From an uncultured Alphaproteobacteria bacterium (GTDB taxonomy: Bacteria; Pseudomonadota; Alphaproteobacteria; CAAHEQ01; UBA3637), in the NCBI GenBank assembly GCA_949292205.1, contig CASEYR010000002.1:1-64000 (forward strand): a DNA stretch of 64,000 bases, written 5' to 3'. Of this stretch, positions 27,816 through 64,000 are shown one piece after another (the stretch's first letter is position 1; each line of letters opens with the position of its first letter). The notes below the pieces were generated by a model. The model was not told the origin of the DNA. It worked only from the letters and a program-made list of their open reading frames with translations, and made no database searches. A program made the position numbers and the translations under genes.

Positions 27816-29369
27816 TTATTGTGCTGAACAGAGCCCATTATTCCACCGTCCACCACATGCCTCACATATTTCTTGGGTATTTAAAACTGGCGAGGCTAAA
27901 TTCTTCGGACAGATGTTGCAATACTCCTCTTTTTTAAACCGCTTATCTGCACCGGCACAAGCCTCTGAGCATAAACCTTTATCACCGACATAAATTCCAT
28001 TTTTAGTATCACATGGATAGCATGTTCCATCAAATGATACGATACCGTTACATTTTTCCAGGACACAATAGGCACCATCTACGAAACGGTTAGGACAATT
28101 TTCATCACATGTTCCACCATACCAAATCATATCAATGTAAATCTTTTCTGGGGTATCACATGGATAACAAGTTTTTTTCTCAGCATCAATAAAACCACTA
28201 CAATACTCATTTTTTAAAATACAATAATCATTTCCACGCCCGCCTTTTTCGCGGAGAGCGCTACATTTACTACAATCATCTACGGTAGCCTCAATTCCCT
28301 CTGGTGTATTACACGGATGACAGCCACCAGTCTTATCCCTAAATCCATTACACGTTTCCAAAACACAATAATTTCCTTTTTTCTCTCGCTTATATCCACT
28401 TTCCTCGCAGGCTTTTTCACACGTTCCACCAGCATCAAGCCAAATTCCCTCCGGTGTATCGCACGGATAGCATGTACCAAGAGTAGAGGATGTGATAAAC
28501 CCATCACAAGCCTCCTCTTTCAAAGAACAGTGTGACTCAGGATATAAATTCCCCATCCAAATCACCTCTCTTTTATCACCACAGTTATCTTCACATTCTG
28601 CGACATTTGTGACCTGAATAGGAGCATTTGTATCACAAGAAAAACAAAATCCTGAGGTATCTCGGAATCCACTTGGACACGGTGTTACACAATAATCATT
28701 CCATAACTCTCTATTAGAGCATATAGACTTACATAGGTCCCCATTAGAAACTTTAATAGGTGTCGTATCATCACACAGCGCACACTCCCCCAACTCATTA
28801 CAAATAATATTATTTTCAGGAGCAGTTAGATCTATATCCTCTGGGGGATTTCCTCCTCCCTCCTCACCCTCACCGACAGATCCATCCTCCAAGTCATTCG
28901 CAAAAGCAAACAAGATATCATTCGTGTCATTTGGACATTCGCTTAAATCATCTATATCTTGTCCGTCAACACTTTCCCAAACGGCGAAAGGCAAGTAATC
29001 AGCTATCATGCGATCACAAATCCCTTTTGGAATATCTAGAACCGTCAACGTAAAATATCCAGAATTCCCGTCATGATTATCCGCCGAAACAATATCATAC
29101 ACTCCGATAATTTTTCCATTATTTTCATACTCAGAAAAAGAAATTTCTTTACCGAATACACGTTGTTGACTGACGGTAATGGCACGCTTCCGAACTTCGT
29201 TCAGAATCTCGTTCGCATTATATTTATCCATCGCATACCGATAGCCCGCTATCCCCCCGATTGCCAACACACCCATAATCGCCAGAACACCCAGCATTTC
29301 TACCATACTGCGTCCTCTTTCGTTTTCTATCTCATTTTCTTTTAACCTGTTATTCTCTTTTTCCAACAT
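27816..29369 (-). CDS. Pilin-leader surface protein with six cysteine-rich repeats
   Basis: A 517-residue protein in four parts. (1) A charged leader of about 19 residues ending in Gly, then RSMVEMLGVLAIMGVLAIGG: a class III prepilin signal with Gly at -1 and Glu at +5, and a hydrophobic pilin helix. (2) A globular domain to residue 160 with FTLTV, Cys118, Cys145 and LFAF. (3) An acidic Gly/Pro linker. (4) From about residue 190 six repeats of 45-50 residues, each built on a C-x2-C-D/N-T core (CYPCDTPEGI type), a C..C pair and YCxLxxCNGF, plus a partial seventh at the C-terminus. Expected at the cell surface as a minor pilin or pseudopilin with a disulfide-rich stalk. Start ATG 29369 has GAGGAG six bases upstream; an in-frame start 66 bases earlier lacks one. 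Monocistronic; no pilus assembly genes nearby. Confidence 0.8.
   Translation of the reverse strand: MLEKENNRLKENEIENERGRSMVEMLGVLAIMGVLAIGGIAGYRYAMDKYNANEILNEVRKRAITVSQQRVFGKEISFSEYENNGKIIGVYDIVSADNHDGNSGYFTLTVLDIPKGICDRMIADYLPFAVWESVDGQDIDDLSECPNDTNDILFAFANDLEDGSVGEGEEGGGNPPEDIDLTAPENNIICNELGECALCDDTTPIKVSNGDLCKSICSNRELWNDYCVTPCPSGFRDTSGFCFSCDTNAPIQVTNVAECEDNCGDKREVIWMGNLYPESHCSLKEEACDGFITSSTLGTCYPCDTPEGIWLDAGGTCEKACEESGYKREKKGNYCVLETCNGFRDKTGGCHPCNTPEGIEATVDDCSKCSALREKGGRGNDYCILKNEYCSGFIDAEKKTCYPCDTPEKIYIDMIWYGGTCDENCPNRFVDGAYCVLEKCNGIVSFDGTCYPCDTKNGIYVGDKGLCSEACAGADKRFKKEEYCNICPKNLASPVLNTQEICEACGGRWNNGLCSAQ
27820..28802 (-). repeat. Coding tandem repeats, cysteine-rich module (six units plus partial)
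   Basis: Six diverged units of roughly 135-175 bases inside the pilin-leader gene. Each encodes about six cysteines in the order C-x2-C, C, C, YC, C. The recurring peptide cores are CDDTTPI, CDTNAPI, CDTPEGI, CNTPEGI, CDTPEKI and CDTKNGI. The divergence between units argues for old, selected repeats rather than recent slippage. Confidence 0.75.
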
Positions 29370-29600
29370 GTTTGACTCCTCTAATAATCGTCCTTTTTTA
29401 TAAGCATAAAAGCATTTCAACTTTACCCTTATCATAGATAAAAAATCATTACAAGGCTTTTTTAGGATTTTTTCTATTTTTTGAGTTGCTTTTTAGATGA
29501 TTACTTATTTCTTTATGACATCAACTTTAGTGTAACAATTTAATGTCGCTTATTTTAAATCCATCCTTATAAAAACACACAGCAAACATCAAAATAAGTG

Positions 29601-61728: not shown

Positions 61729-62445
61729 ATGCGAGAGATTGTATTAGATACGGAAACGACGGGATTGGATCCGCTTCAAGGAGATCGGATAGTTGAGATT
61801 GGGTGTGTTGAGCTTATCAACCACGTTCCGACGGGACGCACCTATCAGCGGTATTTAAATCCGGATAAAGCGATGTCTGCCGAGGTTATAGCCGTGCACG
61901 GTTTAACGGATGATTTTTTAGCGGATAAGCCACGTTTTCCCGAGATAGCGGATGAATTTTTAGCTTTTATCGGGGATGATGCCAAGCTGGTTATTCACAA
62001 TGCCGCATTTGATATGAAGTTTTTGAATGCCGAGCTTGAGAAATGTGGGCGTCAATCTTTATCGTATGATCGAGTGATTGATACCTTGATTATTGCCCGC
62101 CAAAAGTTTCCGGGAAGTCGTGTGAATTTGAACGAGTTGTGTAAGCGTTTTAATGTTGATGCTTCGGCACGAACGGTTCACGGAGCTCTGCTGGATAGCG
62201 AGTTATTGGCTGAAGTGTATTTAGAGCTGATTGGCGGACGCGAACCGGGATTCGTTTTAAATGCGTCTCAGAAGAAGCAAGCGGATGTTCCCTCTGTTGT
62301 GGCAGAGGCAGTATCTTCGACGCAAAAAACATTTCACGAGCCTCGCTCTTTTGCCGTTTCGGAAGAAGAAACAAAAGCGCATCTTGCTTTTATGCAAAAG
62401 ATTCCGAATAATTTATGGGGGATTTCAAAAGAAAATGAAAGCTAA
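61729..62445 (+). CDS. dnaQ: DNA polymerase III epsilon subunit (3'-5' proofreading exonuclease)
   Basis: A 238-residue DEDDh exonuclease. ExoI: VLDTETTGLDP; ExoII: VIHNAAFDMKFLNAEL; ExoIII: VHGALLDSELLAEVY with the catalytic His and Asp. The C-terminal tail (about residues 180-238) should bind the alpha subunit; a clamp-binding stretch is not obvious. AAAGGAT precedes the ATG. The next gene starts 11 bases before its stop. Its promoter is directly next to DnaA boxes. Confidence 0.95.
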   Translation: MREIVLDTETTGLDPLQGDRIVEIGCVELINHVPTGRTYQRYLNPDKAMSAEVIAVHGLTDDFLADKPRFPEIADEFLAFIGDDAKLVIHNAAFDMKFLNAELEKCGRQSLSYDRVIDTLIIARQKFPGSRVNLNELCKRFNVDASARTVHGALLDSELLAEVYLELIGGREPGFVLNASQKKQADVPSVVAEAVSSTQKTFHEPRSFAVSEEETKAHLAFMQKIPNNLWGISKENES

Positions 62446-62902
62446 TTTAATAAGAATGAAACAATTTTGTTGTGTTGGTTTATTATTTGTCTCAATATCA
62501 ACACAGGCTCAGATGCTGGACTCATTGTCGGGATTAGCTGTTCAAGGGGCTTTAACGGGACAGTCCGCCTCCTCGGCTGCTCAAGGATTATCTCTTTTAA
62601 AACAGACACAAATTCTGCAGGATTTAAATCAAGTTGCCATGGAAATTAAGATGACTTATATGAATGGTTATCAAGGTGTTTCCAAAGCATCTGTTTTAGG
62701 TCAGCCATTTCAAGGTTTGTCATGGTCGATTGGTTCCGATACAGCTAGACAGTTTTATATAGAGTTATCTGATTTGGATCAAGCAACGTGTCGTTATTTA
62801 GCGACACGCATGACATCGGCACAGAAAGTTCAGATTAACACAAACGGCAGTTCTGCCGATCAGTGTCAACAAACGAATACAATTCGCTTTGTTTTTGATT
62901 AA
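62435..62902 (+). CDS. Secreted protein with pilin-type globular domain
   Basis: A 155-residue protein. A signal peptide (MKQFCCVGLLFVSISTQAQ after a short basic lead) replaces the prepilin helix. Residues 27-75 are an Ala/Gln/Leu-rich amphipathic helix region. Residues about 95-155 match the globular domain of the pilin-leader proteins at 27816 and 62906: QFYIELSDLDQATC with Phe107 12 residues before Cys119, second Cys144, and a terminal IRFVF strand. It may be a soluble pilin-like partner or periplasmic subunit. ATG 62435 is uncertain against ATG 62456; neither has a good Shine-Dalgarno. Convergent with the next gene, three bases apart. Confidence 0.65.
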   Translation: MKANLIRMKQFCCVGLLFVSISTQAQMLDSLSGLAVQGALTGQSASSAAQGLSLLKQTQILQDLNQVAMEIKMTYMNGYQGVSKASVLGQPFQGLSWSIGSDTARQFYIELSDLDQATCRYLATRMTSAQKVQINTNGSSADQCQQTNTIRFVFD

Positions 62903-62905
62903 AAA

Positions 62906-64000
62906 TCAATCACATAAAACATTTGCTCTAGTGATGTTTTTCTGAAAATGTGCTTGTGCAACTCCTTCAGAGATATTTAAAAAGTAAGCCTGACACGATC
63001 CGTTATCCTTGTCTGTCCAATAGAAATAGCCACCGACTTTATTGTGAAGCTCTACCATCGCCGGAGCGCGATTATAGTTTTCCAATAAACAATCTGTGGC
63101 ATCTTGATCACAGCACAACCACCCGTATTCCTCTGATGTCGGTTCTCCGTTTGTATTGTAACAATTTAATGTTTTTGCATTGATTTTATTTAGTTTTTTG
63201 TCATGAGAAATACACCAATTTTTAGCGCTCCACCATGTCATAGTGGGACCCTTCCAAACATATTTATCGGTTTTACCGTCTCCATTTAAATCTAAAGGAA
63301 TAGCGTTATTTTGATTTTGAGCCTCTCCTTTGTCTCGGCATGTTCCAACACCGAGATGATTACAATCTATTGGATTTTCAAAAGCGCAGTACTTTGATGA
63401 GTCAATTTTTCCATCTGATGTTTTACAATCTTCGTTACGAGTACACTCTCCTTCTGAGGTATAACATTGACTATTTTCTGCTGTTCCGGATGTTGTACAG
63501 ATTTCACCGCTTTGACAACAGATTTCACCACACATTTCCCAGCCGTTGGGACACAGACATCTTCCCGAAGAACAAACAGTTCCATTTGGGCAAACAACAT
63601 CGGCACATCTTGGATCCGGAGGAGGAACATCCTTTAAAGTATTCTCAAAAGCAAAAGTCAAAAGGCTCTCCGTTTCAATGGGGCATTGTGTGTCATCCGT
63701 AACAATAACCTCTCCGACTTTTGTTTCAACAGGTAAGGACCAGTCCATATCTAGCAGAGCATTACAAATTCCCTCGGGAATATGATCAACGGATATAGTA
63801 AAGAATCCTGAATTACCATTGTATTCATTAGCAACCGAGACAAGATGCCTGTTTTGAATCAAGTCAACACCGGCATTTGGATGAAATTCATGTAAGTTAA
63901 TATCCATATTCCGAATACGTTGTTGACTGGCAATAAAGGCTCGTTTTTTAACTTCATTGATAATTTCATTGGCGTTATATCTATCCATAGCCCAGCGATA
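62906..64000 (-). CDS. Pilin-leader surface protein with cysteine-knot and lectin-like C-terminus (5' end cut by window)
   Basis: At least 364 residues; the N-terminus lies beyond the window edge. The visible start YRWAMDRYNANEIINEVKKR matches the region just after the pilin helix of the protein at 27816, so a prepilin signal is expected upstream. The globular domain follows (GFFTISVDHIPEGIC, second Cys 27 residues later, TFAF), then a VPPPDP linker and a compact cysteine-rich segment (CPNGTVCSSGRCLCPNGWEMC, CGEICCQSGEIC). The last 140 residues resemble a C-type-lectin-like fold: MTWWSAKNWCISHDKKL, EEYGWLCC, GGYFYWTDK and a terminal NVLCD. Likely a surface adhesin on a pilus-like scaffold. 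Sugar binding is not shown. Confidence 0.75.
   Translation of the reverse strand, partial: YRWAMDRYNANEIINEVKKRAFIASQQRIRNMDINLHEFHPNAGVDLIQNRHLVSVANEYNGNSGFFTISVDHIPEGICNALLDMDWSLPVETKVGEVIVTDDTQCPIETESLLTFAFENTLKDVPPPDPRCADVVCPNGTVCSSGRCLCPNGWEMCGEICCQSGEICTTSGTAENSQCYTSEGECTRNEDCKTSDGKIDSSKYCAFENPIDCNHLGVGTCRDKGEAQNQNNAIPLDLNGDGKTDKYVWKGPTMTWWSAKNWCISHDKKLNKINAKTLNCYNTNGEPTSEEYGWLCCDQDATDCLLENYNRAPAMVELHNKVGGYFYWTDKDNGSCQAYFLNISEGVAQAHFQKNITRANVLCD

What the first reader, a model, noticed from the sequence alone, without database searches (positions are those of the whole stretch)
62435..64000. One pilin-type globular domain shared by three proteins with different attachments
In the proteins at 27816-29369, 62435-62902 and 62906-64000 a strand with Phe is followed exactly 12 residues later by Cys, then a second Cys after 25-27 residues, then a hydrophobic F-x-F strand 8-12 residues on. 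Two carry a prepilin helix; one has a secretion signal and an amphipathic helix instead. The same fold is thus offered with a repeat stalk, a lectin-like head, or alone. This looks like a modular surface-display family; the spacing is read directly, homology to PilS/type IVb pilins is inference.
Basis: partly seen in the sequence, partly recalled or inferred. Interest (0 to 1): 0.8.

Follow-up and report, generated by a model that had tools for sequence, protein, structure and literature searches.

The report
Soluble pilin among modular type IVb pilins
Three proteins of a small-genome alphaproteobacterium share one type IVb pilus-subunit domain: two are ordinary 'modular' pilins carrying long extra heads, and the third is an unusual whole pilin that has lost its membrane helix, is exported by the ordinary secretion route, and is kept next to the chromosome-partitioning genes across most of its order.

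Summary
The spacing is real: F-x11-C-x24-26-C-x7-11-FxF occurs three times in the window, exactly in the three named proteins (0.07 expected), and F-x11-C is shared by the type IVb pilins TcpA and PilS. Proteins 27816-29372 and 62906-64126 (past the window end) are modular class-III prepilins, two of about 24 in a 1.32-Mb genome with one R64/IncI-type machine (PilL-N-O-P-Q-R plus a prepilin peptidase). Relatives carry 6-94 each. The surprise is 62435-62902: not a pilin head on a foreign helix but a full-length pilin. Profile comparison with the prepilins runs through helix alpha1 (E 2e-14), 20 of 20 Sec-type orthologs keep an acidic residue at the Glu5 position, and its own AlphaFold model matches PilS, CofA and TcpA (Z 10-11). 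Yet alpha1-N is no longer membrane-hydrophobic, a Sec/signal-peptidase-I signal replaces the prepilin leader, and the gene follows dnaQ, before rsmG-parA-parB, in nearly all syntenic genomes checked. It is under purifying selection, most conserved in its first 15 mature residues. Most likely it is a periplasmic pilin paralogue that binds pilins or the pilus base through that segment; function is inferred. New variant of a known kind.

The parts
62435..62902 (+). Soluble full-length pilin paralogue (155 aa): Sec/SPI signal peptide, resurfaced alpha1, type IVb pilin globular domain
   Evidence: PilS PF08805 E 0.014, below cut-off; hhalign to prepilins E 1.9e-14; AF2 pLDDT 83; PDB matches are type IVb pilins; ortholog in about 34 of 43 genomes
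62435..62509 (+). Signal peptide (residues 1-25), predicted cleavage A25^Q26
   Evidence: hydrophobic core, then a small residue at -1 (A 18, G 1, S 1) and Gln at +1 in all 20 Sec-type orthologs; no SignalP available
62510..62554 (+). Mature N-terminus QMLDSLSGLAVQGAL, counterpart of pilin alpha1-N MVEMLGVLAIMG; D29 sits at the Glu5 position
   Evidence: alpha1-N alone: hhalign score 16.9, shuffle maximum 12.6; most conserved segment, entropy 0.70 against 1.3-1.9 elsewhere; hydropathy 0.31 against 1.77 in prepilins
62660..62899 (+). Globular pilin domain with F107, C119, C144 and terminal F-x-F strand
   Evidence: aligned with PilS 3fhu, Z 11.3
27816..29372 (-). Modular prepilin: leader, GRSMVEMLGVLA, pilin domain (28884-29315), Cys-rich repeat stalk
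62906..64000 (-). Modular prepilin, continuing to 64126 of the contig: pilin domain (63629-64072), Cys-rich linker, lectin-like head
62909..63259 (-). C-type-lectin-like head of the second prepilin
   Evidence: profile of five paralogous heads: best PDB hits are CLEC1B over nearly the whole profile, but weak (E 0.1)
61729..62445 (+). dnaQ (polymerase III epsilon), conserved upstream neighbour of the soluble pilin
   Evidence: same dnaQ-ORF order in the loci fetched

Best explanation
All three proteins carry the same type IVb pilin domain (shown by sequence; by structure model for one). The two prepilins are processed by a prepilin peptidase and assembled by the genome's single R64/IncI-type type IVb machine (machine shown by sequence; use inferred), and present their stalks and lectin-like heads on the pilus as PilV does (inferred). 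Protein 62435-62902 is a pilin paralogue converted to a soluble protein: a Sec signal replaced the prepilin leader and alpha1-N was resurfaced so that it no longer looks membrane-spanning, while the pilin register, the acidic residue at the Glu5 position and the head were kept (shown by sequence). It is exported to the periplasm and cut by signal peptidase I (inferred from the motif). Most likely it works there by binding pilins or the pilus base through its highly conserved pilin-like N-terminal segment, as a chaperone, dock or cap (inferred, about 0.4). The confidence given is for identity and topology together with some pilus-related role.
For: Identity: hhalign of 21 orthologs against 18 prepilins, probability 98, E 1.9e-14, aligned from the first mature Met; the prepilin HMM finds orthologs in named genome contigs at E down to 1.6e-9 from model position 4, and the ortholog HMM finds many prepilins. 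Alpha1-N and the globular part each beat all 100 column shuffles. AF2 from ortholog rows only: pLDDT 83, pTM 0.74, one long helix plus sheet; the best PDB rows are PilS, CofA and TcpA, Z 10.2-11.3, against 7.0 or less for entries that are not type IVb pilins. Conversion: Sec/SPI motif and D/E at the Glu5 position in 20 of 20, hydropathy 0.31 against 1.77. Functional: dN/dS 0.11-0.26, N-terminus most conserved. Machine: one secretin, one T2SSF protein, one peptidase; operon proteins L, N, O, P, Q and R each match their R64 counterpart best and in R64 order, conserved across the order.
Against: The gene is outside the pil operon and beside housekeeping genes. It is truly absent (dnaQ directly followed by rsmG) in five genomes that still carry prepilins, most of them with the pil operon or a T2SSF match, so it is not a core assembly part. 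In three related genomes (G020, G022, G024) the signal looks like an uncleaved anchor and the alpha1-N motif is lost. No expression, localisation or binding data exist. The prepilin model was poor (pLDDT 52).
Confidence: 0.6

Rival explanations
1. The soluble pilin is an effector secreted through the pilus channel, working like the secreted proteins TcpF and CofJ of other type IVb pili.
For: Sec signal and no anchor in 20 of 21 aligned orthologs; type IVb machines are known to export soluble partners (PMC5207764 for TcpF; the CofJ work is cited in PMC10191384).
Against: TcpF and CofJ are not known to be pilins (own knowledge); the gene is not in the pil operon; three orthologs look membrane-anchored.
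Confidence: 0.15
2. It is the stand-in for PilM, the component missing between PilL and PilN in these operons, moved elsewhere on the chromosome.
For: No pilM-like gene in any operon fetched, whereas R64 has one; the PilM structure 3eoi is among the structural rows (Z 5.7); anchored orthologs have a PilM-like topology.
Against: No sequence similarity to R64 PilM (hhalign probability 0.1); the resemblance is to PilS; Z 5.7 may mean only a common arrangement; the genomes without the gene show no pilM gene either.
Confidence: 0.12
3. A pilin copy recruited for a job unrelated to pili, for example an envelope function tied to chromosome partitioning or the cell pole, near whose genes it is encoded.
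For: Linkage to dnaQ-rsmG-parA-parB; loss in some genomes that keep prepilins.
Against: The conserved segment is exactly the pilin assembly helix with an acidic residue at the Glu5 position, which such a role would not need.
Confidence: 0.15
4. A decaying prepilin pseudogene.
For: Lost in some genomes.
Against: dN/dS 0.11-0.26 and a conserved Sec site in 20 of 20.
Confidence: 0.02

Closest known systems
Type IVb pilins TcpA, CofA and PilS (Pfam PilS PF08805, TcpA PF05946)
   Same: Fold, F-x11-C spacing, two Cys in the C-terminal region, terminal strand; best PDB matches
   Different: 62435-62902 lacks the prepilin leader and the hydrophobic alpha1-N; all three proteins score below the Pfam cut-off
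R64/IncI thin pilus: PilL to PilV, with the PilV adhesins of the shufflon
   Same: PilL-N-O-P-Q-R order and best matches; pilins with exchangeable C-terminal adhesive parts (PMC9045228)
   Different: No pilM, pilS, pilT or pilV in the operon; variety comes from many separate genes; a shufflon was not looked for in detail
Modular pilins (S. sanguinis PilB and PilC)
   Same: Pilin module plus grafted adhesive modules (PMC8179133, PMC9934059, PMC10191384)
   Different: Type IVb, in a diderm, with dozens of paralogues per genome
Geobacter split pilin (stick and head as two proteins)
   Same: Precedent for a pilin head made as a separate protein (PMC10191384)
   Different: Here the separate protein keeps the whole alpha1 register; it is not a head alone
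TcpB/CofB minor pilins
   Same: Residue 5 governs a pilus-dynamics role; Asp at position 5 nearly works in TcpB (PMC5207764)
   Different: TcpB is a membrane prepilin with a large C-terminal part

Membership tests
Type IVb pilin fold (PilS/TcpA/CofA) | Long alpha1 plus alpha-beta globular domain of type IVb topology | tested here: met
   For 62435-62902: AF2 and PDB. The prepilin model was too poor to test
Type IVb pilin fold (PilS/TcpA/CofA) | Disulfide between the two conserved Cys | tested here: inconclusive
   Both Cys conserved and aligned with those of PilS; the distance in the model was not available
Type IVb pilin fold (PilS/TcpA/CofA) | Pfam PilS gathering score | tested here: not met
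   15.9 bits against 22
Prepilin (class III signal) | Leader, G at -1, E at +5, hydrophobic alpha1-N, for the two prepilins | tested here: met
   GRSMVEMLGVLA; G and E columns invariant in 18 paralogues
Prepilin (class III signal) | The same features for 62435-62902 | tested here: not met
   Sec/SPI site A^Q instead, hydropathy of the segment low
R64-type type IVb assembly machine | PilL/TcpQ, PilN secretin, PilO2, PilP, PilQ, PilR and a prepilin peptidase in the genome | tested here: met
   the PilP match is weak (E 3.7e-4)
PilM (R64) | Sequence homology to PilM | tested here: not met
   hhalign probability 0.1
Modular pilin | Pilin module followed by non-pilin modules | tested here: met
   Stalks and heads in paralogues; heads C-type-lectin-like but weak
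Modular pilin | Incorporated into a pilus and adhesive | not testable with these tools
   needs an experiment

The most novel reading that the evidence does not exclude
A pilus chain-terminator or decoy: a soluble pilin whose acidic residue can dock on the terminal subunit but whose invariant N-terminal Gln (which could cyclise to uncharged pyroglutamate) cannot accept the next subunit, so that it caps or releases type IVb pili from the periplasm. The Gln and the acid are observed; docking and cyclisation are speculation.
Probability: 0.15. Interest if true: 0.85.

Novelty: new variant of a known kind. Interest (0 to 1): 0.6.

Why it matters
Pilins are treated as membrane proteins until they polymerise. 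A widely kept, selected, water-soluble version that retains the assembly helix would be a natural probe of how pilin docking works and a possible new kind of pilus regulator. The surrounding lineage appears to run one type IVb machine with up to 94 prepilin-like genes in genomes of 0.7-1.8 Mb: a large natural library of modular pilins, and a test bed for how one machine selects among many subunits.

Tried and rejected
PHROGs (orthologs) and NCBIfam gave no usable family. PF08805 search of the genome: two weak hits, none over cut-off. No relatives by the prepilin profile in viral contigs, nor by a prepilin domain in the plasmid collection. AF2 of the prepilin domain with three rows was too poor to compare folds. 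PilM identity was tested by sequence and not supported. That genomes lacking the gene keep a copy in the pil operon: not seen in the operons fetched. No link between presence of the soluble pilin and prepilin number is apparent in the counts (not tested statistically). Paper searches did not turn up a description of this pilin expansion, but the library is incomplete.

Full report
Observation. The pattern F-x11-C-x24-26-C-x7-11-F-x-F occurs three times in the window, exactly in the three proteins named, against 0.067 expected. The prepilin at 62906 runs to 64126 of its contig and is complete there.

A large prepilin family. The window is part of a 1.32-Mb, 26-contig genome. The 27816 protein finds more than 20 further places in it; translated, most are class-III prepilins (GRSMVEMLGVLA...), short ones of about 150 aa and long ones with Cys-rich stalks and heads. 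A profile of 18 pilin domains has 24 matches in this genome and 6 to 94 in each of 43 genomes of the family, 1,300 in all, median 26 (three genomes reached the scoring limit, and some matches may be the soluble pilin). Paralogues L005-L008 share 90-97% of DNA in the pilin domain but 54-71% in the stalk, and 9 of 22 prepilin places lie within 1 kb of a contig end, as expected of repeats that break assembly. The heads weakly resemble C-type lectins.

One machine. The genome has one secretin match, one T2SSF protein and one prepilin peptidase. The operon at C4:32387-42184 encodes an unknown 354-aa protein, then TcpQ/PilL, secretin/PilN, PilO, a PilP-like protein, T2SSE/PilQ and T2SSF/PilR. Profiles of these families match R64 PilL, PilN, PilO2, PilP, PilQ and PilR best, in the R64 order; the PilP match is weak. 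The order is the same in nearly all genomes fetched, with no pilM or pilS in the operon.

The soluble pilin. Protein 62435-62902 has orthologs in about 34 of 43 family genomes. In the loci fetched it follows dnaQ and is in nearly all cases followed by rsmG-parA-parB (in G018 and G021 the downstream genes differ or are rearranged). In this genome the lectin-head prepilin is inserted on the other strand between it and rsmG; the relatives inspected lack that insertion. In five genomes dnaQ is followed directly by rsmG, a real absence. Ortholog and prepilin profiles align over the whole mature protein, E 1.9e-14. The prepilin HMM recognises orthologs in genome contigs fetched separately. Tested apart, alpha1-N, all of alpha1 and the globular part each exceed 100 of 100 column shuffles. 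A model built from ortholog rows only (pLDDT 83) matches PilS, CofA and TcpA at Z 10-11 and, for two full-length pilins, aligns from residue 1; its first 13 residues are modelled with low confidence. So by sequence this is a pilin from end to end.

What changed. In the 20 Sec-type orthologs a hydrophobic signal ends in a small residue followed by invariant Gln; three residues on there is always Asp or Glu, at the Glu5 position. The segment has mean hydropathy 0.31 against 1.77 in prepilins (means over 21 and 18 rows). The first 15 mature residues are the most conserved part (0.70 bits against 1.3-1.9), and ortholog pairs give dN/dS of 0.11-0.26. In G020, G022 and G024 the signal looks like an uncleaved anchor and the motif is lost. 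In the class-wide sample, the six places inspected outside the order are ordinary prepilins, so the soluble form looks restricted to this order; that search scored only ten candidates per genome and cannot exclude others.

Mechanism. Shown: homology, fold model, signal swap, loss of membrane hydrophobicity, selection. Inferred: export to the periplasm; binding to pilins or the pilus base through the conserved N-terminal segment. Residue 5 matters for docking in TCP, and Asp nearly replaces Glu in TcpB (PMC5207764). A soluble subunit cannot enter from the membrane plane as pilins do, so capping, chaperoning or holding are the open choices. The gene is not a core assembly part, since piliation genes persist without it.

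Source organism. Named contigs reached through dnaQ that carry the gene come from MAGs called only 'Alphaproteobacteria bacterium' or 'uncultured Alphaproteobacteria bacterium', several from ruminants; the order was not named by these tools.

Noticed in passing
L104:5804-6601 (G000:C5, around 14031): A SHOCT-TM2 protein whose C-terminus continues into a pilin-like alpha1 and short head (GGIAGYTSAMQRFRAYQI...): another attachment of a pilin-like segment.
   Followed up: partly
L098:4388-5449: A 354-aa protein without Pfam match opens the pil operon in nearly every genome fetched.
   Followed up: partly
L098:3799-4179: A TrbC/VirB2-like conjugative pilin gene lies divergently beside the pil operon in many of the genomes.
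   Followed up: no
L005, L006, L007, L008: Prepilin paralogues with a nearly constant pilin domain and divergent stalks, with contig ends in or near them: possible recombination or recent duplication.
   Followed up: partly
L053, L054, L058: Orthologs of the soluble pilin with an apparently uncleaved N-terminal anchor and without the conserved N-terminal motif.
   Followed up: partly
L217:1277-3566: In another alphaproteobacterial family four short prepilins sit directly beside T2SSF and T2SSE genes, perhaps the ancestral arrangement.
   Followed up: no
G000:C10:7269-7685 and C13:8620-9186: Two further T2SSE-type ATPases, one that looks VirB11-like beside type IV secretion genes.
   Followed up: no
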